In this document: in pieces, positions 18,590 through 58,047 of the stretch
Numbering within the stretch: the stretch's first letter is position 1
Layout of the letters: every line of letters begins with the position of its first letter
Assembly: GCA_001632425.1 (NCBI GenBank)
Contig: KV425573.1
Location: 198,460 to 262,459, forward strand
Reading direction: 5' to 3'
Length of the DNA: 64,000 nt
Source of the DNA: Neolentinus lepideus HHB14362 ss-1
Taxonomy: Eukaryota > Basidiomycota > Agaricomycetes > Gloeophyllales > Gloeophyllaceae
Program-made: the position numbers and the translations under genes
The notes under the pieces: model-generated
What the model saw: the letters and a program-made list of their open reading frames with translations, nothing else
What the model was told of the DNA's origin: nothing
The model's database searches: none

Positions 18590-21500
18590 TCATTGGTGCG
18601 ACTGAGCTGAAGATTTCCTTGCTCTACGGTGATCGTCCTTACTATTCTGCATCCCTCGTCGCACTCTCGCCATCATCTTCTCCGTCTTCTGTAACATTTC
18701 CTCTAGTCTCCGCTTCTCCTCTTCTAGCTGGTAGTGGTGTTTCTTCAGCTCCTTATAGCTGGGCCAGTCTTTGCCGCCTTGTCGCATCGACGACAAAAAC
18801 TTGGCCAGGTGGAAGTAGTCGATCGGCTTCGCGGGCCAGCCAGCATACACGCAGTCCTTCTCTGCGATCTCACCCGAAGTTAAAAGTGTATGCTCCAGAA
18901 GCATCGAGTTCGCTTCCATGGACGCTCCGGACAGTAGACGGGAGCCAGAACGCATGGCACACCTTCAGGCGTACTTAAGTAAACGATCAAGAATTAGGAG
19001 GAAATGCGAAACTTACGAGTCAGCGATCTTCAAGCGATTGAGAGAAAAGTTCCCGCGAGAGTTGATGTGCGCCACCACAGAGCAATCATCAAGACAAACA
19101 CGATCTCCGAGTTCGACCAAGTCTGGCTCAGTCATCAAGCCGACACGTCCACCAGCAAAGAGCGCGACGTCCTTCCCGATTTTCGCTCCTTGCGCCCGGT
19201 AGAACCATACGATATAGGCCGAGCCCGTCAGGTTCCCAAGGACCCCTCCATTGCCATAGCTGCGATGGAGGACGCGAGATAGCACGAGATGGAGTTGCCA
19301 GCGCTGGCAATAGCTGCTCTTGTCCCAGTCGTATTGTCCCTCCTTCCTCCTACCGATGACGAGCCACTTGGTCAAGATAACCCATGACAAGGCTATGTAT
19401 GCCTGGATGTTCAGCGCCAGAACGAAGAACATGCTGATCATGCCGAATAGCACGAAGAACCGGTACCATGTATCCGCAAAAAGCCGTGTGTGGTGAAAGT
19501 GAATCCGCAGCTGATTAAGTGCCTGCGTGACAGCGATCGCACCCATGGACCAGAATCCAGCGCATATACCGGCAATAAGCAGATTGATCAGGAGTAGCAT
19601 CAGATATGGAAACACAAAAAACGGCGCTTCGCGCTTGTAGAAGGCCCTTCCGAAGGGAGTCATCGTATCCCCGCTCATATCCTTGTTACCTTTGCCGAAA
19701 CACACAGCCTCTCCGCGGTCGCAACCCATCCACACCGATCCATCCTCGTAGGTGCCGTTTCGTCTCCCTAGCGCTCCGGAACCCATGATGGCGCGTCGTC
19801 CAACTGTCGTCCCAGGCAGCAATACGACCCGATCCGCGATCATAGCGCCGCTCTTAATGATAATCTTCTCGGAGCTGATGCAATCTGACGTAAAAAGCTC
19901 CGAACGCGAGCCAAATACCACATCATCCCCAACTTCCAGCAGTTCCGGGTCCGGACAGTACACACCTGACCCGGGCCAGTACACCCGACGGCCAATCTTG
20001 GCACCCATCGCGCGGTACACGCAAGATGTCATCTCGTAGTGAGTACCCAATATATCAAAGGCTCGACTGAGGTCACGCTGCGACAGAAGTGCATGGTTGA
20101 TGTGCCACCGCGCCAACGCCCACTGAGAAGCAGTCTTCATCGGACCCCCTCTATTTAATCCCATGAGGCGCTTGAGAGCGATTCCAAGGACGAGCTGGAT
20201 TACTGGAGGGAAGACAACACGAATTATACGAGCAAGGGTATGCCACATAATCCGTCGAGGAGAGGCAAACCATAGGATGACAAGTTCGAGCGGGTTTAAA
20301 CCTGGGGCGTGGAGAGTCTGAGAAAGAAGCGCAACCAACGCGGCGAACCACGGCACGTAGCAGACAAACTTGACGAGAGCAATTAACGGATTGCAGAAGA
20401 ACCACTGCAGCGCCCAATGCGGCTTGCGCAACATGGTCCGGTTGGAATTTGCATTACTGTCCGCTGCAGCCTCCTCGTGTGACGAAGCATGAGGTCCATA
20501 GACTGCGCCAGCGGGTATCTGGGCACCAGGCGAAATCTGGGTGTACGTGTTAATCACGGCACCCTCTCCAATGACAATCCTGTCTAAGCGGAAAAACCCG
20601 TCGCGTTCGACGCAGAACCCACGGATGAGCGCCTTGTCGATGCGGCACCCGCGATGCAATGTGATCAGATCGTACTCGCCCAGTTTTGCCATCTTGTCTA
20701 TCTTCACATCCCACCCTATATGCGCACCGAGTAAGCGGTAGTAAAGTATCTCGAGGGAAGGGTGCATAGCAAAGATTCCGCGGCCCCCAATGCGCAAGCT
20801 CTGGTTGACAATCCACCACCGTAGGTGGTACGATCCCCACATTGGATACGTTCCAGGCTTATACCTGCCAATCACAACCCATTTGAACAAAATAGCCGCC
20901 ACGGGACACAAGACACGGGCGGAAAGCCTGGCAACAACTATCGCGCAGAGCAGGCATCCCAGTCGCACCCAATACTCGGTGTTGGCAATACCTCCCAATA
21001 CGGAGAGTACGAATACGATGATTGTCCACGTCCAGGCAGCTTTGAGTGGGTAGAAGAAGATGAGCGGGAGAGCCTGGACAATCAATGGGATGGGGTGTGT
21101 CTGACTCCTACGCGATCGCGAATTGCCGTAAGAGAGCGATTCAAGGTCTATACTGCCGCCGTCGCTGCCATCATCCTCGTACTTTCTTTTCTTGTCCCCA
21201 GCGACGGATGCCTGTGCTGAGTTGAGCGTCGTCTTGGACATGTTTGCCTCCTCTTCTTCTATGAGGCTGGTGATACCTCGCACAGTGCTGTTCGTGAAGA
21301 TACCAGAAACTTGGATCAATATGCCTGTTTCCTTCCGCAAGTGATGAGCAAGGCGGCCGAGGAGCAGCGAGTTACCGCCAAGGAGGAAGAAATCCGAGTC
21401 GTATGTGATGACACCTGGTTCGATATCAAGGAGGTGGGCAATAGTATCGCGCACGACCAGAGCCGTGCTGGAGAGTGCGGAGGCATTGCGCTTTTGGATC

Positions 21501-23721
21501 TCGTCCTCCATGCGGTCGAAGTCTACGTTACCCTCCGCAGTTTTCGAGAGCGCCTCAGACAGAACGTACAGAGGGCTGGGGACACAGTAGCCATCTACTG
21601 TGTCGAGGAGAGAAGTTGTAAGGACGGTGCTCTCAAGTCCCGATTCGGGAGCAACAGATACGAATGCCTCGAGCATGCCATCTTTTTTGACCCTAACAGC
21701 TACTTCCAGGACACCGATCATGTTATGGAGGACTTGTTCGACGCGGGACAGCTCAAGCGACACTCTCGTGCAGGAGATCGGTTCCGACAAGGGAACGTTT
21801 TTGTCCGGGGCAATTGCCTCGTAGTGACGCATCAGGATAGGAGTATCGTCGGTAAAGCAGCCAAGGCCCAGTCGCTGAGCAAGCTTGATCCGCAAAGGCT
21901 TGCCGGCGTTGTTCTTGGGCAGATCGTCCATGTAGACCACAGCAAATGGCCACTTTGACGGATGCAAGTTTGATTTGAGATGATCTTGCAGTTCCGCAAG
22001 GCTGATGCGAGGTCTTCCTGGAACTGGTATGATGACGACGGCGATGGTTTCCTGGAGCACATCATGTTCGGCTGAAAAAGCGAGGGTAGCCTGGACCTTG
22101 TCCTTCGCCACAGACATGATAGCTTCCTCGATCTCGAACGGCGAAATAACCTCGCCTCCCTTGTTGATGATCTCCTTGGAGCGTCCATTGATGAACAAGT
22201 AGCCATCCTCGTCCATATAGCCCATGTCTCCCGAGTCGAACCATCCTTCGCTCGAGAACGAGGAAGTGTCCAACGGCTTGTCTGGATCGACCTCATATCC
22301 CTGGAAAGTAGGCAATCCACGGACACAGACAGCGCCTGTGGATCCGCGGGCCAACTCTCTCTCAAGATTAGATGGGTCGCGAATGGAAAGATACGGTCCG
22401 CACGCGACACCGGAGCAGCCGGGCCGGTCGAGTTGGTACGTGGTTGGGGGTGATGCGATGGGCATACATTCGGTCATCCCGTATGACGGCAGGATCGCAG
22501 CACCAAACGTCTCCTTCAGCTCAGTAGCGAGAGTGGGGAGGAGACCTCCTGCGGCGTTGGCAATCATGCGCATGCGAGTGTCCCGCGATGGAACTACCGT
22601 TTCTGGTCGGGACGACAGGATGGCATGGTGCATTGTCGGGGCGGCATAATACCTATCAATTCAATAAAATAGTATGTGGTGTGAGTAGTTATGATGATTC
22701 ATTATCAAGGATACCGACCATGTCGCCCCTCGCTCCACGATTACGTTCCAAAACGCGGAGGCGTCGAATCCCGCACACATGATCGCACTGCCTCCAGAGA
22801 ACATCGGTGCCCAGAGGTTGCGAATAATGCCACCGACGTGGAACAGTGGCATCATGTTCACTAGACGGTGAGTGCGTCAGCTCCGTTCGACAGATGTGCG
22901 GATCGCGAGAAGAACTGTACTTACTATTGACATCTTCCGGCTGGAGATCCCAAGACTTGATCACAGCGCACGTCCCGATTATGAGCGACTTGAGTGTGTA
23001 CGGAACGACCTAGGAAATGTTTCATCCTCATTAAGACATACTTAGGAGAGCAGCTTTCGCTTACCTTTTTCTTTCCACTCGTACCAGAGGTGTGCAAGAC
23101 GAGCGAATAATCTTCGAGCCCATGTAGCCTCGATGCAGTGTTCCTCCGTTGCTCCACCACATCCCAGCTTCGATCCTCATTACTCTCGTCCATCACCGAC
23201 ATATCGAACATCCCCGCCGGTCCCCCGGTCCGCGCATGCACGAAAACGATCTCGCAACCCAGCTCGGCCCGCAAAGTTTTTAGCTCCAGCCGATCCGCTG
23301 CATCAGGAGTTGTAATAACAGCCTTTGCCCTGAGCCGCTTGGCGTCTTCACTCAACTCGGCGGCAGTGCAGCTCGAGTTGACCGGAGCGCAGGTGTGGTA
23401 GCTAGCGACGGCTAGCAGCGCCAGTGCGTTTTCAGGACCGGTGGGCAGCACTACCATAACCCGGTCGTTTGGGTTGAGCTGTGGATGCAGCCCCGACGTC
23501 GGTAATGTAAAATTGGAGACGAACTTATGCAATTCGCGGTGGGGGAGGGCCGGGCGGGAGGTATCGGGGGACCATAGTGCAGGGCTCTCCGTACTGCAGA
23601 GACAGTCGAGGAGGGTGTGGTACGTGCCATGCTCTACGATTCTTACTGCTAGCTGATCACCGAGCGAGGTCCCCTGGGCCGGGGCGGGCAGCGTGTTCAA
23701 GAAAGCCAACGGAATGGACAT
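18590..23721 (-). CDS. Pls-like single-module synthetase: adenylation, carrier and three membrane/beta-helix modules
   Basis: Five exons (23721-23065, 23009-22925, 22860-22719, 22652-19017, 18962-18590) sum to 1631 codons. Residues 1-560 form an AMP-binding domain with HTSGTSGKKK (A3), YGMTEC (A5), WFDSGDMGYMDEDGYLFINGR-type A7/A8 and NAGKPLR (A10 lysine). A carrier domain follows with DFFLLGGNSLLL (phosphopantetheine serine near 725). The rest alternates hydrophobic helices with three hexapeptide-repeat (left-handed beta-helix, acyltransferase-like) segments, each opening with a GAKIG or GAHIG motif. This is the order of bacterial epsilon-poly-L-lysine synthetase (Pls) and fungal relatives such as Epichloe VibA. 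It ends in a coiled coil at about 1578-1612 resembling that of the GATA factor. The substrate is unknown; an isopeptide homopolymer of a basic amino acid is an inference. Confidence 0.85.
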
Positions 23722-31645: not shown

Positions 31646-31957
31646 AATATCTCGAAAGTGAGAGGATGCGGCAGGTGCGATGTGGTTAGAGGCAAGAGTA
31701 AGCAATTGTAGCCACCGCTTAAATATACCCGTGATTTCCTACGCGCGACTCGCGTCGACACGTCCCTCGTGACCGTGTCGCGTCCGGCCACGCGCGACCT
31801 TGTTCTCTTTCTGGCGGACCCATTGTCCTCCGTTACCACAGCCGGAAGTTTTCCGGTACTCAGGACTTTGCATTTCTCTTTTATCTGCAGCCACACTCAA
31901 CTTCGACGTTCACTACCACTCTCCTACCTTCGTCTACGCCCACCACCTACACCAACA

Positions 31958-32733
31958 ATGGCCTGCACCAAGCAAACCGCCTGCATGCCCACCGGTGGTA
32001 TGCTTCTTTTATCCTCTCGACCTCCCCTTTCTGCTCACTTGCCTCGCTAATCTGTTCTTTCTTTTTACAGGCAGGCCTCCTCGCAAACACGTCGCGACCA
32101 AGTTTGCTGGGAAGTCCAGCAAGGTATTTACTTCCCTCTTCCTTCTTCCCTCTTCCCTCCACCCCTCTAACCCATTCTCTCGTCATTGTAGGCCGCGATT
32201 GGCAATGTCAAGAAACCTCACCGCTTCCGGCCTGGAAGGGTGGCCCTACGCCAAACTCGACGTTACCAGAGATCAATTGAACTATTGATTAGCAGACTTC
32301 CCTTCCGGCCGCTAGTGAGGCTGACTGCCCGGGATGTCACGGTGAGCTCATGGGATCATCATTTTTCCATCTTCCTTCCTGCTATTGCTCTACCCTCGCT
32401 TCTCTCGCTTTCGCTTTTTCTTGCTCTAACTTGAGTTGTGACCTGATGCTGACAGCACATGTTGAATAGGTGGATCCCCGTCGCCGAGCCTCTGCCATTG
32501 CCCACTTCCAAAAAGCTGATGAGGCGTGGCTCGACTGGCTCTTCGAAACCGACAATCTTGCCTCCCTCCACGCAAAGCGTGCGGCTAGGGGATGTACAGT
32601 CATCAACCGGCGGTTTACACGCCGAATCTTCGATCATCTCTGGAGAGTACAAGAAACAACTAAATTCCAAACTTTTTTCGCTCAATGGAAGATACATATG
32701 CCTAGTTCATTCAGACAAAATTATGGACAATAA
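31958..32733 (+). pseudogene. truncated divergent histone H3 copy (left arm)
   Basis: Exons matching the intact copy at 53928-54606: [31 protein letters not shown], the [20 protein letters not shown] block, and [20 protein letters not shown]. Compared with canonical H3 it has R2C, R8C, K9M and S10P. After the HAKR of helix 2/loop 2 the remaining 18 codons are deleted, and the frame runs about 40 codons into unrelated and insertion-derived sequence before stopping near 32733. Splice signals are intact, so it may still be transcribed, but the histone fold lacks helix 3. Confidence 0.8.
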
Positions 32734-33367
32734 CATTGTGTCGTCGTTGTGCTATAATAAAATCTTTTTGGCAGATGGGTGAGTGGCTGAATGTGTCCTT
32801 TACACAGCAATGTTACACAGGATCATGCCTGCCCTACCATAGTCAGATGTCATAGACTGTAGCAGTAGAGTCAAAGATATCTAGGAATGCTCCAATTACC
32901 AGTACACCCCCGAAGCACCAATATATTCACAATCAAATCCAAGTGGTTGTGTAGCAAAGCCTCACGGGGTGGGACTTGCCTTATTTGGATGCCTGCCTTC
33001 CTACCGTGTAAGAGTGTATTTGGATGATAACTCATCAATGACTGAACGGATTCCTTTCATTCCTTATTTGAAGCTAAAGATAAAAACATGTAGAATTCAT
33101 TGAGCCCAACCACTTTCAGCTGTGTTCCATGTGCTTTGCACTAGCCCATGTTCAAGTTTCAGTGGCTCTTTCCATGCAGCACAAACTCGTGTCACATAAC
33201 ACAGAACTTGAGTTAAACCATGCTATTTAAAGCAAATAATGTACATAGGTATTCTGTCTAATAAATGAGCACAAAAGGAGCAGAAACCGAGCAGCAGAAA
33301 CCGAGCAGCAGAAACCGAGCAACAGTCAAGTGTGTAAACGAGTGGTCACGTGTAATAGAGCGGTTGA
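32597..33367. mobile_element. 771-base insertion with imperfect terminal inverted repeats
   Basis: The right arm reads GGGGATGTA directly into AAGTATTGTATTG, while the left arm has 771 extra bases between them. Near its ends, 32603-32621 (TCAACCGGCGGTTTACACG) and the reverse complement of 33349-33367 (TCAACCGCTCTATTACACG) match at 14 of 19 positions. There is no coding frame, so it resembles a non-autonomous DNA transposon. I see no clear target-site duplication. A triple repeat of GCAGAAACCGA lies inside at 33285-33322. Confidence 0.55.
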
Positions 33368-34118
33368 AAGTATTGTATTGTAGCTTTGTTCGTTGTCTTT
33401 CTAGCATCTTGTATCTGTTTACAATTGTAATTTGTTCGAAGCCCCGTCTGTCCAGTAGCCGTGTAAATGGGCAATTGTGGACGTAAGGCATATTGTGGCT
33501 GAGGATGTGGTGATGCTACAATGATCAGATGTGGCAATGGCGCCGCTGAGCTTCTGGAACGCTGGCGCTGAGAATTCGAGAAGTACTGCTATACTACTAG
33601 TACTACTATAGTACAGCAGGCATCGAGACACTGATGAGGCTCTTCCACCTTCGGCCTGCAGTATACCAATCCTCTTAATTTACTGGTCTTCATGGTCGAG
33701 GTTGTCTTCCGATGCATCATACAGTACTTAGCTGTCTGGGATGTTACTGTCTTCCGATCAAATTTAGTAGGCTTCTGACGCGGCTCTAGGACATTACCTT
33801 AGCCCATCCAATCTGATTATGTTCATGTCTGCTGTGGCTCAAGCGCTCACGGACAAGTATATGTTGCTCACGTAGATGGTGAATGTCGAGCGATAGAAAG
33901 TACCCCTGGCCGCGGAGAATCCAATACTTACTCGCGTTCTGTTGTTCCCATCCCAGTGAGTGGTTTTCTGGACAGAAGTTAATCTACTCTGAGAAGTGGG
34001 CTGTGCGTTAGGAAACTTCACTCGGCGGCTGACACCGAGTGTCTACCCTCCGGTCAGCCTCCCGATCGCAGACGGTCATCGAAGCTCATGCCGCCCCGCC
34101 GAGTGCGTTTGAACTCCG

Positions 34119-35448
34119 ATGCCAGCCACCCTTCCAGGAGGATATAAACCATCCACAGCTCACCGTACGCTCTCACCACTCCTCTTCCCGCTTTACCTCT
34201 CATCTCTTCCACTTTCTTCTGCGTTGACTCTAACCCTCGCTGCAACAGTACTGAACTTGAGGTGGTCAGACGTCGAACACAGTATCAGAGCTACAAGTAC
34301 CAGTGGCAGTCCACTACAAGGCAAGTGCAGTCTCCGAACCTATGATCCGAAAAAACCACCCCTGTGTGTACCCCTTCGGTTGCGTGGGCTAGTGCCCTGT
34401 CACGTCAAGAAGGCCACAAGACCTCGTGATTCATCACAAAAGCCGTTTCAGAAGCGAGGGTCGGGGGCAGGTGGTCAGAATTCAGTGGCTGACACTTGCA
34501 TTATGTTAGGTTTCTCCTCGATGGCCTTGAGGTGGTCAGCCGTCGAACACAGTATCAGACAGTATCAGAACTACAAGTACCGTTGGCAGTGGTTAGTCAA
34601 CTACAAGGCAAGTGCAGTCTCCGAACCTATGATCCGAAAAAACCACCCCTGTGTGTACCCCTTCGGTTGCGTGGGCTAGTGCCCTGTCACGTCAAGAAGG
34701 CCACAAGACCTCGTGATTCATCACAAAAGCCGTTTCAGAAGCGAGGGTCGGGGGCAGGTGGTCAGAATTCAGCGGCTGACACTTGCATTATTTTAGGTTT
34801 TCTCATCGATGACTAAAGTTCAAGATGACCTCAAACGCAACGGACGGTATTCACTCTGCTATGAGTTAATGAAGGAAACAAACGCAAGTGCAGCTTCAGA
34901 CTTGGTCCTTCTTTGACGAAGATGGCTGGCGTTGGTGTGCCATATAATTGCAGGAGCCGCCTCGAGTGAACTGATCCCTCGCTCTCTTTAACGAAGATGG
35001 CTGGCAATGTATGGCATTATCCCAATCGCCAAAGCCCCCTCAGAGAGGATCAGGTTGTGACAGAGATGGTCGAGGCTGACACCTGCTTGCTTCCAGGTCT
35101 TTGCATTCACATCCGACAATATGGTCTCCTTTTGGAATGTATGGTCTCGCAGTTGGTGTCAGGGTGAAAGAGAGAAGGGACAGAAGGCAAGTGCAGCTTC
35201 ACACCTACTCTCCCTTCAACGTAGAAGGCCGTTGTTATGATGCACCATATGATCATGGAAGCTGCCGTAGAGCTCAGAGGAAATGGCTGGCGGTGTTAAG
35301 GTGCTATCATTTCATCCATTTCGTCGGTATCTCTATAGAGGGAGGTTAGGTCGTGACACGGATAGTCAAGGCTGACACTTACTTCTTTCAGGTCCTGTGC
35401 GTTTGTGCTCGACAACGGTGGGACTTCACAGAGGATGGCCAACTGTAA
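34119..35448 (+). CDS. candidate gene of tandem-duplicated exons with GC-AG-type introns (left arm)
   Basis: Five exon-like blocks at 34119-34320, 34510-34607, 34797-34883, 35097-35186 and 35392-35448 join in one frame to 177 codons. Every donor is GCAAGT (usually AAG|GCAAGTGCAG) and every acceptor is preceded by GGCTGACAC, a branch-site match. Exons 2-4 are 87-98 bases and the introns 189-213, giving a unit of about 280 bases. The peptide LRWSDVEHSIR of exon 1 recurs as LRWSAVEHSIR in exon 2; exons 2 and 3 begin FSSM. A hydrophobic stretch (PLLFPLYLSSLPLSSALTL) lies near the N-terminus. If transcription starts after the TATAAA at 34143, the first ATG would be 34521 and the product 106 residues. 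No family recognised; it could be a spliced non-coding RNA. Confidence 0.4.
34257..34800 (+). repeat. nearly identical tandem duplication of one exon-intron unit
   Basis: The block from GAGGTGGTCAGACGTCG through TTCAGTGGCTGACACTTGCA is present twice, with a period near 286 bases from donor to donor (34321, 34608). The intron part is almost identical between copies; the right arm has only one copy, so the duplication happened after, or was lost since, the inverted duplication. Confidence 0.8.
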
Positions 35449-52224: not shown

Positions 52225-53134
52225 TCGTTAAAATGATCGCACCTTACAACGCGAACGATTTCCTCTGAATGTGATCGAGTTCTGAGGCAGCTTCTACGAT
52301 CATATGGTGCATCATAACAACGGCCATCTGCGTTGAAGGGAGAGTAGGTGCGAAGCTGCACTTGCCTTTTGTACCTTCTGTCTTTCACTTCAACACCGAC
52401 TACGAGACCATATTGGGGTATGCGAATGAATGCAAAGACCTGGAAGCAAGCAGGTGTCAGCCTCGACCATCTGTGTAAACAACCTGATCCTCTCTGAAGG
52501 AGCTTCGGCGATTGTGATAGTGTCATGCATTGCCCGCCACCTCCTTTAAAGAGAGCGAGGGATCAGTTCACCACGAGGCGGCTCCTGCGATTATATGTTA
52601 CACCAACGCCAGCCATCTTCGTCAAAGAAGGTCCAAGTCTGAAGCTGCACTTGCCTTTGTTTCCTTCATTACCATTCATGGGAGAGTAAATACCGTCCGT
52701 TGCGTTTAAGGTCGTCTTGGACTTCATCCATCGATGAGAAAACCTAACATAATGCAAGTGTCAGCCACTGAATTCTGACCACCTGCCCCCGACCCTCGCT
52801 CCTGAAACGGCTTCTGTGATGAATCACGAGGTCTTGTGGCCTTCTTGACGTGACAGGGCACTAGCCCACGCAACCGAAGGGGTACACACAGGGGTGGTTT
52901 TTTCGGATCATAGGTTCGGAGACTGCACTTGCCTTGTAGTGGACTGCCACTGGTACTTGTAGCTCTGATACTGTGTTCGACGTCTGACCACCTCAAGTTC
53001 AGTACTGTTGCAGCGAGGGTTAGAGTCAACGCAGAAGAAAGTGGAAGAGATGAGAGGTAAAGCGGGAAGAGGAGTGGTGAGAGCGTACGGTGAGCTGTGG
53101 ATGGTTTATATCCTCCTGGAAGGGTGGCTAGCAT
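52225..53134 (-). pseudogene. frame-broken copy of the tandem-exon unit (right arm)
   Basis: Minus-strand counterpart of 34119-35335, starting MLATLPGGYKPSTAHRTLSP at 53134. The GC donor and GGCTGACAC acceptor signals are preserved. Because one 286-base unit is missing, the first exon now joins the FSSM exon out of phase and stops after GFLIDG; the next exon (VFAFIRIPQYGLVVGVEVKD) is open but no longer in register. May still be transcribed. Confidence 0.45.
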
Positions 53135-53927
53135 CGGAGTTCAAATGCGCTCGGCGGGGCGGCATGAGCTTCGATGACCGTCTGCGATCGGGAGGCTGAC
53201 CGAGGGTAGACACTCGGTGTCAGCCGCCGAGTGAAGTTTCCTGACGCACAGCCCACTTCTCAGAGTAGATTCATAACTTATGTCCAGAAAACCACTCACT
53301 GGGATGGGAACAACAGAACGCGAGTAAGTATTGGATTCTCCGCGGCCAGGGGTACTTTCTATCGCTCGACATTCACCGTCTACGTGAACAACATATACTT
53401 GTCCGTGAGCCACAGCAGACATGAACATAGTCAGATTGGATGTGCTAAGGTAATGTAACAGAGCCGCGTCAGAAGCCTGCTAAATTTGATCGGAAGACAG
53501 CAACATCGCAGACAGCTAGGTACTGCATGATGCATCGGCAGACAACCTCGACCATGAAGACCAGTAAATTAAGAGGATTGGTATACTGCAGGCCGAAGAT
53601 GGAAAAGCCTCATCAGTGTCTCGATGCCTGCTGTACTATAGTAGTGTAGTAGTAGAGCAGTACTTCTCGAATTCTCAGCGCTAGTCAGCCAATGAACGTT
53701 CCAGAAGCTCAGCGGCGCCATTGCCACATCTGATCATTGTAGCATCACCACATCCTCAGCCACAATATGCCTTACGTCCACAATTGCCCATTTACACGGC
53801 TACTGGACAGACGGGGCTTCGAACAAATTACAATTGTAAACAGATACAAGATGCTAGAAAGACAACGAACAAAGCTACAATACAATACTTTACATCCCCT
53901 AGCCGAAAGTGTATGTGGAATCGCCGT

Positions 53928-54606
53928 CTATGCCCGCTCGCCGCGCAACCGCTTTGCGAGGGCACGATCTTCGGATCGGATGACACGCTTTGCGTGGAGG
54001 GAGGCAATATTGTTGGTTTCGAAGAGCCAGTCGAGCCACGCCTCATCAGCTTTTTGGAAGTGGGCAATGGCAGAGGCTCGGAGACGGGGATCCACCTATT
54101 CAACATGTGCTGTCAGCATCAGATCACAACTCAAGTTAGAGCAAGGAAAAGCGAAAGCGAGAGAAGCGAGGGTAGAGCAATAGCAGGAAGGAAGATGGAA
54201 AAATGATTATCCCATGAGCTCACCGTGAAATCGCGGGCAATCAGCCTCACTAGCGGCCGGAAGGGAAGTCTGCTAATCAATAGTTCAATTGATTTCTGGT
54301 AGCGTCGAGTTTGGCGTAGGGCAACCCTTCCAGGCCGGAAGCGGTGAGGTTTCTTTACATCGCCGATCGCGGCCTACAATTGCGAGAGAATGGGTTAGAG
54401 GGGTGGAGGGAAGAAGGAAGAAGGAAGAGAGAAGTAAACACCTTGCTGGACTTCCCAGCAAACTTGGTTGCGAGGTATTTGCGAGGAGGTCTGCCTGTAA
54501 AAAGGAAGAACAGACGAGCGAGGCAAGTGAGCAGAAAGGGAGGTCGAGAGGATAAAAGAAGCATACCACCGGTGGGCATGCGGGCGGTTCGCTTGGTGCG
54601 TGCCAT
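53928..54606 (-). CDS. divergent histone H3 variant with Met at position 9
   Basis: Four exons (54606-54567, 54494-54442, 54373-54224, 54095-53928) give exactly 136 residues, the length of H3. N-tail: [20 protein letters not shown]. The core keeps [55 protein letters not shown] and the C-terminal RLRGERA. Against canonical H3: Q5R, K9M, S10P, K14R, R26G and K79T, with K4, K27, K36 and K56 kept; T118 is Ile. One residue is inserted before VKKPH and one missing in the last loop. There is no CENP-A-like loop 1 expansion. The intact frame, GT-AG introns and conserved length argue for a functional gene. Effects on H3K9 methylation are inferred from other systems, where H3K9M is a dominant inhibitor. 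Confidence 0.85.
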
Positions 54607-54887
54607 TGTTGGTGTAGGTGGTGGGCGTAGACGAAGGTAGTAGAGTGGTAGTGAACGTCGAAGTTGAGTGTGGCTGCAGATAAAAGAGAAATGCAAAGTC
54701 CTGAGTACCGGAAAACTTCCGGCTGTGGTAATGGAGGACAATGGGTTCGCCAGAAAGAGAACAAGGTCGCGCGTGGCCGGACGCGACACGGTCACGGGGA
54801 CGCGTCGACGCGAGCCACGGATATATTTAAGCGGTGACTGCAATCGCCTCCTCTTGCCTCTCACCACATCGCACCTCTCACTTTCGA

Positions 54888-56335: not shown

Positions 56336-58047
56336 CAATCGTACTATGAGCAAGGAAGAAGGTCGGCATATGCTTGTCGATTATGGAGTCGACGCAGACG
56401 TTGATACTTACCTTAGCTGCCAGCTCAGTCGTGTTACCGTCCACTTGTTTGCTGTACCACGGACATGTGTAGCACCCTCGTAAGCACGACCCTTTCCTAG
56501 ATGTTGACTGTGCACTTACCTCCTTGTCCTCCACCTCCGCAGCCCTCCTAGTTATAACTATTCCACGCTACCAGATGCTCCTCTTAATCTCTCCCTGATC
56601 ACATTCTTTCTCCAAGCTCACACTGTCCCTGCCCTCTCTTCCTTTCAACTGTCCTCACTACGTCTTGGTCTCCCGCATACCCCCAGCTCATCATATGCTC
56701 ATCCAGTTTTTTTTTTCGCTTTTTTGTCTTTCTGCTTTCCGAGCCTTGTCTTATCCACCGCCCGCACCCCATCCACTCTTCAAGTTCCTTCTGTTCCTTT
56801 CGCTTGCGTCATGTACATGTCCCTTGCCAACCCAAAAGTCTTGAGCAATTACTTCGCACCTCTGCCGTCATGGCATTGTCGTTTCGTCGGCAAGTGATCA
56901 ATGATCTGACGATAACCAGACATCCAGGATAATAGTGCGGTTTCTTCGTAGACTTCGAGCACCATTGCACTCCTCGGTTAAGCACGTTAAACTGGGAGAC
57001 TGGAGCGCAGCCCAGGGGTTACGGTATATATCGCCAAGCGTCCATGTCCACGACAGAAGTATTCTAAGCAGTCTTCCCGCAGACGCGGTCACAGCGGCCC
57101 GATCGTGGCGCCACAACGCATTCTCTCAGACATCTCACCGTTACATGTAATTACATAACTATCCTATTCAACGCCCAAAGGCGCACTTACGAATCCCGCC
57201 AACGTTCAAGAGTATTGAGCACTCAAACAATTCATCGATAATATCCGTCATTTGCTGGGGCTAGGGGACACTTGAGTGTGTAGCTGATATATGTCATTTT
57301 AATTTACAGAGAACGTCCGACCCGAAGAGGGCGAGCCAGAGGAAGCATGTGCCTTGTGAAGGCTCTCGTAGAAAGTCCCCTAGGATAGGACACCTGATGA
57401 TTTAGGTTACGACACTTGAGTGTTATTTCCTGTCGGACGTCCGACTTCAAATGCAGGGATCACTGTCGTAGAGTTCTCACTATCTATCTGCGAGACCAGA
57501 AAGGTCGTGGGCTCTTGAAAAAAGTGATATTCCCAGTAGTCAATCACTCTAAGCGTACTATAGTACCCCGGGCAACTGCACGATGCCTGCCAAAAAGAAT
57601 TTCAAGCATCCGAGAGCAATGATTGCGATGGAGGCCATCTGGAAGGACACCTACCCGCCTTCTTCGACCTTGAAAGCTGGGGAAAACTTTACGAAAGGCA
57701 AAAGGCCGTCATAGAAACTCAGGATGCGGTCCGACTCATACAGACGAGGAGGGAGAAACCGAGGAAGCCGAGCCTACACAGTAAATACGCTTCGCGTCGT
57801 ACCAGTGTTCTTCGGGGACACATTTGCTCCGGCAATTCGTGCCAATGAGCCATAATTACCAGCATTGTCGACTGCACCATCGATGAACGTAAAGAAGTAC
57901 GTGAACGTTGTTCGCGTCACTACATTCAAATATCATAACAGAGAAGATTCATCTGCGCTTAAGATAAGCAAATCAAAGAACCGTATCATTTCAAGGAAGC
58001 CAGTAGCTCTCTTGGCTGCAGGTTTCGATGAGTATTTATATCCCGTT
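56336..58047. other. gene-poor interval with a pyrimidine-rich stretch
   Basis: A CT-rich tract at about 56540-56800 resembles a fungal promoter/5' leader and leads to an ATG at 56811, but the frame (MYMSLANPKVLSNYFAPLPS) stops after 27 codons. No gene could be built. The remainder is unremarkable. Confidence 0.4.

What the first reader, a model, noticed from the sequence alone, without database searches (positions are those of the whole stretch)
53928..54606. Intact histone H3 variant with a natural K9M/S10P tail
Four well-formed exons encode exactly 136 residues ending in the H3 signature RGERA, yet Lys9 is Met (codon 54577-54579), Ser10 is Pro, Lys14 is Arg and Lys79 is Thr, while K4, K27, K36 and K56 remain. 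H3K9M is known from engineered and disease alleles as a dominant block of H3K9 methyltransferases, and T118I is a known nucleosome-loosening (Sin) change; Ile is seen at that place here. A gene-encoded version could act as a built-in anti-heterochromatin histone. Both arms carry M at this place, so it predates the duplication. That it is expressed and incorporated is inference.
Basis: partly seen in the sequence, partly recalled or inferred. Interest (0 to 1): 0.88.

Follow-up and report, generated by a model that had tools for sequence, protein, structure and literature searches.

The report
Fungal histone H3 family with K9M
A wood-rotting fungus carries several intact histone H3 genes whose key silencing residue, lysine 9, is replaced by methionine, the change that in laboratory strains blocks gene silencing; the copy first noticed is a much-changed cousin of two nearly normal ones.

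Summary
The gene is real: four GT-AG exons at 54606-53928 (-) encode 136 residues with Met9 and Pro10, identical to a database protein of Neolentinus lepideus HHB14362 ss-1. 'T118I' is wrong: T118 is deleted and the Ile is I119. The window copy (VR) is highly diverged. The better finding lies outside the window: the same genome has two near-canonical H3 genes, M1 and M2, with K9M, Ser10 kept, and 130 of 137 residues identical to a canonical H3; a third protein, P0051, is on a short contig of the same named strain. Three H3 genes keep K9. M1 and M2 differ by dS 0.40, dN 0.015; in their ends, which stay distinct from canonical H3, by 6 silent and 0 replacement changes. The core looks homogenised with canonical H3. 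A Clr4/DIM-5-like methyltransferase candidate is present. Most likely this is a retained H3K9M family that can limit H3K9 methylation dose-dependently. Expression, incorporation and conservation in sister species are untested. VR itself (M9-P10) is probably a poor trap.

The parts
53928..54606 (-). VR: intact divergent H3K9M gene, 4 exons, 136 aa (M9, P10)
   Evidence: identical to P0191
54577..54579 (-). Met9 codon (ATG)
54567..54606 (-). exon 1 of VR
54442..54494 (-). exon 2 of VR
54224..54373 (-). exon 3 of VR
53928..54095 (-). exon 4 of VR with stop
54607..54846 (-). upstream flank of VR, alignable with M1 and M2 in parts (M1 against VR 81-86% in three of the four 60-nt blocks -240 to -1, 40% in the fourth; limits approximate) but not with canonical copy A
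53712..53927 (-). 3' flank of VR, alignable with M1 and M2; with A only over about the first 20 bases
31958..32581 (+). VL: left-arm K9M copy, C-terminus lost by a deletion next to an insertion; broken
   Evidence: P0192 is its partial gene model
32600..33366 (+). stretch seen only in the left arm; one match (itself) in the held genome; limits approximate
31765..35275 (+). left arm of the inverted duplication
52277..54799 (-). right arm of the inverted duplication

Best explanation
VR is the divergent but still open member of an H3K9M paralogue family in the fungus Neolentinus lepideus. The main members (M1, M2 and the protein P0051) are near-canonical H3 with Met at position 9 and Ser10 kept; M1 and M2 have flanks of their own and no H4 gene beside them in the sequence held. 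Shown: the genes, features shared by the K9M copies that point to one origin, purifying selection on M1/M2 including the tail, a mosaic pattern in which the core tracks canonical H3 while the K9M tail and C-terminus stay distinct, and a Clr4/DIM-5-like methyltransferase candidate in the same genome. Inferred: the proteins are made and enter chromatin through their nearly unchanged histone fold; nucleosomes carrying them cannot be methylated at position 9; and Met9 occupies the methyltransferase's lysine pocket and holds the enzyme in a SAM-dependent way, as H3K9M does in fission yeast, so that expression level or timing sets how far H3K9 methylation spreads. VR, with P10 and no T118, is probably a weak or non-trapping side branch.
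For: Family and K9M. Third member P0051 (annotated as partial). Shared features besides M9: the RSKD stretch (RSED in VR) and the C-terminal Ala; among 218 fetched database H3s with a RVTI..[KR]D motif, RSKD occurs once, and P0051 has it; D22 was found only in P0051. Selection: M1-M2 dS 0.398, dN 0.015, ratio 0.037; ends only, 0 replacement: 6 silent, P 3.4e-4. Mosaic: sites where M1=M2 differ from A are 16 of 22 variable sites in the ends and 6 of 37 in the middle, Fisher P 2.2e-5; flanks of M1 match VR but not A. Canonical A and B lie divergently beside an H4 gene; no H4 match lies beside M1 or M2. Methyltransferase: Pre-SET match and a downstream NHSCAPN motif on C5. [quoted passage not shown]).
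Against: No RNA or protein evidence of expression. No sister species could be searched; all members of the family seen carry the name of this one strain. Four other K9M proteins (P0157, P0159, P0176, P0186) lack D22 and RSKD and show that isolated M9 entries turn up in databases. Exchange with conserved canonical donors may itself lower the M1-M2 ratio (A-M1 dS 0.342 is below M1-M2 dS 0.398, A-M2 0.505); the ends-only test rests on 6 changes and on a division chosen after the identity profile. M9 may persist because exchange tracts do not reach the ends. A strong constitutive K9M would be expected to be costly, so an effect must be dose- or stage-limited. Only about 660 bases upstream of M1 and M2 are readable before a gap or contig end, so an H4 partner further off is not excluded. 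No HP1 was identified (one search is uninformative).
Confidence: 0.45

Rival explanations
1. The K9M genes are expressed H3 variants, but Met9 only removes a methylation site locally (a K9me-refractory H3 for active or stage-specific chromatin) and does not trap the enzyme at physiological dose.
For: No H4 gene beside M1 or M2 and flanks unlike A's, as expected of a variant under separate control. Dose matters in fission yeast: diploids with one copy of hht3-K9M kept normal H3K9me2.
Against: The same diploids lost about half of H3K9me3 and were partly desilenced. Met is the residue shown to bind the lysine pocket tightly, and the M1/M2 tail equals the crystallised peptide.
Confidence: 0.3
2. 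The whole K9M branch is a set of poorly expressed relics; M1 and M2 look conserved only because exchange with canonical H3 keeps refreshing their cores, and K9M is a neutral hitch-hiker.
For: The core mosaic; VR is highly diverged and VL is broken; lack of stops in VR is not significant by itself (neutral probability 0.08-0.22).
Against: Ends outside the exchanged core show 0 replacement: 6 silent changes between M1 and M2 (P 3.4e-4); both genes model with open frames and GT-AG introns; VR branch 3:5 (P 0.028).
Confidence: 0.2
3. Assembly artefact: M1 and M2 are chimeras of canonical and K9M reads near a gap and a contig end.
For: M1's upstream flank runs into an N gap and M2's into the contig end at the matching place, with 93-100% identity in all but the last 60 nt of the 600 nt upstream.
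Against: M1 and M2 cores differ from A and from each other at many silent sites, so they are not patched from the held copies; P0051 is on another contig; M9 itself also occurs in VR and VL.
Confidence: 0.05

Closest known systems
Engineered H3K9M in fission yeast (hht3-K9M, PMC5030085) and other K-to-M oncohistones
   Same: Same residue change; residues 1-15 of M1/M2 identical to the G9a-bound peptide; carried by some of the H3 genes beside normal H3
   Different: Natural, several copies, with further changes (D22, R120, S121, A135) and purifying selection; no demonstrated dominance
EZHIP (mammalian K27M-like inhibitor of PRC2; PMC6513997, start of abstract in listing only)
   Same: A natural protein using a K-to-M-like mimic against a histone methyltransferase
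   Different: EZHIP targets PRC2 and is not an H3 (recalled); here the methionine sits in H3 itself at K9
Canonical H3 of this genome (copies A, B, C)
   Same: M1/M2 core nearly identical; A has the same two introns at residues 14 and 81 (B and C have more)
   Different: K9M, D22, RSKD, C-terminal Ala; flanks unlike A's; no H4 beside them as A and B have
CENP-A (CenH3-like copy on C71 in this genome, named by eye)
   Same: Divergent H3 in the same genome
   Different: The C71 copy has a glycine-rich stretch before the core; VR keeps an H3-type tail and the C-terminal RGERA and has no loop-1 insertion

Membership tests
Histone H3 (non-centromeric) | N-tail ARTKxTAR.. and H3 core with RLRGER end | tested here: met
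   exon 3 of VR over the Pfam PF00125 cut-off
H3K9M-type (lysine-to-methionine) histone | Met at position 9 in an otherwise H3 tail | tested here: met
   VR, VL, M1, M2, P0051
H3K9M-type (lysine-to-methionine) histone | Ser10 context compatible with methyltransferase binding | tested here: inconclusive
   Ser10 kept in M1, M2, P0051; Pro in VR and VL; effect of Pro10 not known from any call
H3K9M-type (lysine-to-methionine) histone | Dominant loss of H3K9 methylation in vivo | not testable with these tools
   needs bench work
H3K9M-type (lysine-to-methionine) histone | Target enzyme encoded in the genome | tested here: met
   Pre-SET 66.8 bits on C5 and NHSCAPN motif downstream; gene not fully modelled, substrate not tested
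Functional gene rather than pseudogene | dN/dS well below 1 with open frame | tested here: met
   M1-M2 0.037, ends 0N:6S; VR branch about 0.20 from 3N:5S; VL fails (about 1.5, truncated)
Functional gene rather than pseudogene | Transcript and protein | not testable with these tools
   no RNA or proteome data on hand
CENP-A | Longer loop 1 and divergent tail (recalled) | tested here: not met
   no loop-1 insertion in VR (alignment); a separate CENP-A-like gene is on C71
Sin-type H3 (T118I) | Ile in place of T118 | tested here: not met
   T118 deleted, Ile is I119

The most novel reading that the evidence does not exclude
A eukaryote has made a K-to-M 'oncohistone' a normal part of its histone set: a multi-copy, selectively maintained H3K9M variant that limits or re-sets H3K9 heterochromatin in a fungus, perhaps at a stage such as fruiting or mating, with its tail held distinct while its core exchanges with canonical H3.
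Probability: 0.4. Interest if true: 0.93.

Novelty: new variant of a known kind. Interest (0 to 1): 0.78.

Why it matters
H3K9M is known from engineered cells as a dominant block of H3K9 methylation (PMC5030085). A species that keeps near-canonical H3K9M genes under purifying selection beside normal H3 and a candidate H3K9 methyltransferase would be a natural test of how a cell lives with, or uses, a K-to-M histone. No paper on a natural H3K9M showed in the listings of searches (3 papers; 0; 2; 0; 4; 4) of an open-licence library; one search held 2,361 papers, of which 30 were listed, because its term also matches H3K9me, so it says little. Apart from PMC5030085 these papers were seen as listings only.

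Tried and rejected
Rejected: the T118I/Sin reading (deletion); a second species with K9M (P0051 first looked like one, and my note speaks of a clade in Gloeophyllales, but one search showed that the window is from the same named strain); lack of stop codons in VR as proof of function (neutral simulation 0.08-0.22); third-position G+C as a sign of expression (0.54-0.74 in canonical copies, 0.61-0.68 in M1, M2, VR and VL: uninformative); a CENP-A identity for VR; the left-arm insertion as a dispersed repeat (only itself found); the stretch 56.4-57.2 kb that resembles C23:328-1059 as a linked gene (no clear protein by eye); an HP1 search (chromo-shadow found nothing and its controls found nothing either; of 36 chromodomain matches five were looked at, the best reads like a CHD remodeller and one looks like a retroelement end by eye, none was settled as HP1). 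Structure prediction was not run: a single-chain model would not say whether VR enters nucleosomes. A PDB sequence search with the K9M tail gave nothing of use (136 matches, 60 shown, the two alignments read were K9 tails).

Limits: 168 contigs are held; P0051's 6530-base contig does not appear among the matches, so the count of K9M genes is a lower bound. The protein collection is clustered at 90% and 120 rows are shown per search (7988, 7285 and 371 proteins passed), so K9M members in related fungi may be hidden. No eukaryotic genome of another species could be searched.

Full report
What is there. The window lies at C23:198460-262459 of a 33.8-Mb genome held in 168 contigs. VR's 136-residue protein equals database protein P0191, named for Neolentinus lepideus HHB14362 ss-1, on a contig of 460875 bases, the length of C23. 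So the organism is named by that record; that it is a wood-decay (brown-rot) Agaricomycete, and that 'ss-1' means a single-spore isolate, are recalled. VR runs from ATG 54606 to stop 53928 on the minus strand with three GT-AG introns. It has M9, P10, R14, T at K79, and keeps K4, K27, K36 and K56. T118 is deleted: VR reads RV-IRSED where M1/M2 read RVTIRSKD, so the claimed T118I is an alignment slip. VL, the left-arm copy, also has M9 but loses its C-terminus after LHAKR.

The larger finding. A search of the own genome with canonical H3 gave 19 exon-level matches. Eighteen of them fall into eight H3-type loci: three with K9 (A at C23:3438, B at C23:47859, C at C11:73274), two near-canonical with M9 and S10 (M1 at C23:9441-9968, M2 at C60:207297-207822), VR, VL and a CENP-A-like gene on C71; the other match, at C23:343677 (E 0.61), was not followed. 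A degenerate pattern for the first ten codons that demands M9 finds four places, M1, M2, VR and VL; its backward control finds none. A further K9M protein, P0051, annotated as partial, comes from a 6530-base contig of the same named strain. M1 and M2 each share 130 of 137 residues with A, and VR 86 of 136.

How unusual. Of 267 proteins fetched in three searches, 255 have a readable tail motif: K9 in 245, M in 6, F in 2, L in 1, R in 1; 12 have none. The six M are P0051, P0191 (VR) and four proteins without D22 or RSKD (P0157, P0159, P0176, P0186), of which two are short for H3 (124 and 113 residues). In the search with VR, 117 of 119 readable rows of the 120 shown have K9; the two M are both N. 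lepideus. P0192, the left copy's model, was unreadable because it starts after exon 1. The collections are clustered and the lists cut at 120 rows, so this is no proof of absence elsewhere.

History. M1/M2 share with VR parts of the upstream flank, the 3' flank, M9, and the RS(K/E)D..RGERA end; A's flanks do not align with either beyond about 20 bases. Yet the middle of M1/M2 matches A far better than VR, and A, M1 and M2 lack the intron near residue 31 that VR, VL, B and C have. Among 59 variable nucleotide sites between A, M1 and M2, M1=M2 differing from A is 16 of 22 in residues 1-28 and 116-136 but 6 of 37 in the middle (Fisher P 2.2e-5; the division was chosen). The simplest account is exchange of the core with an A-like gene while the ends stayed K9M-specific. 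The direction is not proven.

Selection. M1-M2: 32.5 silent and 4.5 replacement differences, dS 0.398, dN 0.015 (Nei-Gojobori); A-M1 dS is 0.342 and A-M2 0.505, so exchange with A blurs dating. In the ends alone: 6 silent, 0 replacement, P 3.4e-4. After the VR/VL split, outside the broken end and with the ancestral base taken as the majority of the five other H3 genes: VR 3 replacement, 5 silent (P of 3 or fewer 0.028); VL 9 and 2; one silent site unassigned; VR against VL one-sided P 0.067. VR-VL pairwise ratio 0.40. VR's open frame alone is not significant. So M1/M2 are under clear constraint, VR perhaps, VL not.

Mechanism. The genome holds one Pre-SET match with a downstream NHSCAPN motif, a Clr4/DIM-5-type candidate by recalled motif, and five cytosine-methylase matches over the cut-off. 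In fission yeast K9M in one of three H3 genes blocks H3K9 methylation dominantly and dose-dependently, with SAM-dependent trapping of Clr4; phosphorylated S10 weakens binding and S10D in cis restores normal heterochromatin (PMC5030085: abstract, passages and section 12). M1/M2 carry exactly the peptide used in the G9a structure; P0051 differs from it at residue 15. VR has P10, so trapping by VR is doubtful (inference). A and B each lie divergently beside one of four H4 loci; no H4 match lies beside M1 or M2, though only about 660 bases upstream of each can be read. That fits separate control (inference).

Verdict. Main gaps: expression, and conservation outside this strain.

Noticed in passing
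C23:9969-10625 and C60:207823-208485 (outside window): Upstream flanks of M1 and M2 are mostly 93-100% identical, more than their coding regions, and both run into a gap or contig end at the matching place; recent exchange or assembly collapse.
   Followed up: partly
C71:46408-46858 (outside window): CENP-A-like gene with a long glycine run before its core.
   Followed up: no
window 56439-57239: Resembles C23:328-1059 and C23:12162-12841, stretches on either side of the M1 gene; no clear protein by eye.
   Followed up: partly
window 34308-34513 and 34595-34800: 206-nt direct repeat, 99% identical, inside the left arm.
   Followed up: no
window 19013-23721 (-): AMP-binding, carrier and hexapeptide domains: an NRPS-like synthetase left of the left arm.
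   Followed up: no
database proteins P0157, P0159, P0176, P0186 (M9), P0184, P0185 (F9), P0122 (L9), P0136 (R9): Isolated H3-like proteins with a residue other than K at position 9; quality unknown.
   Followed up: no
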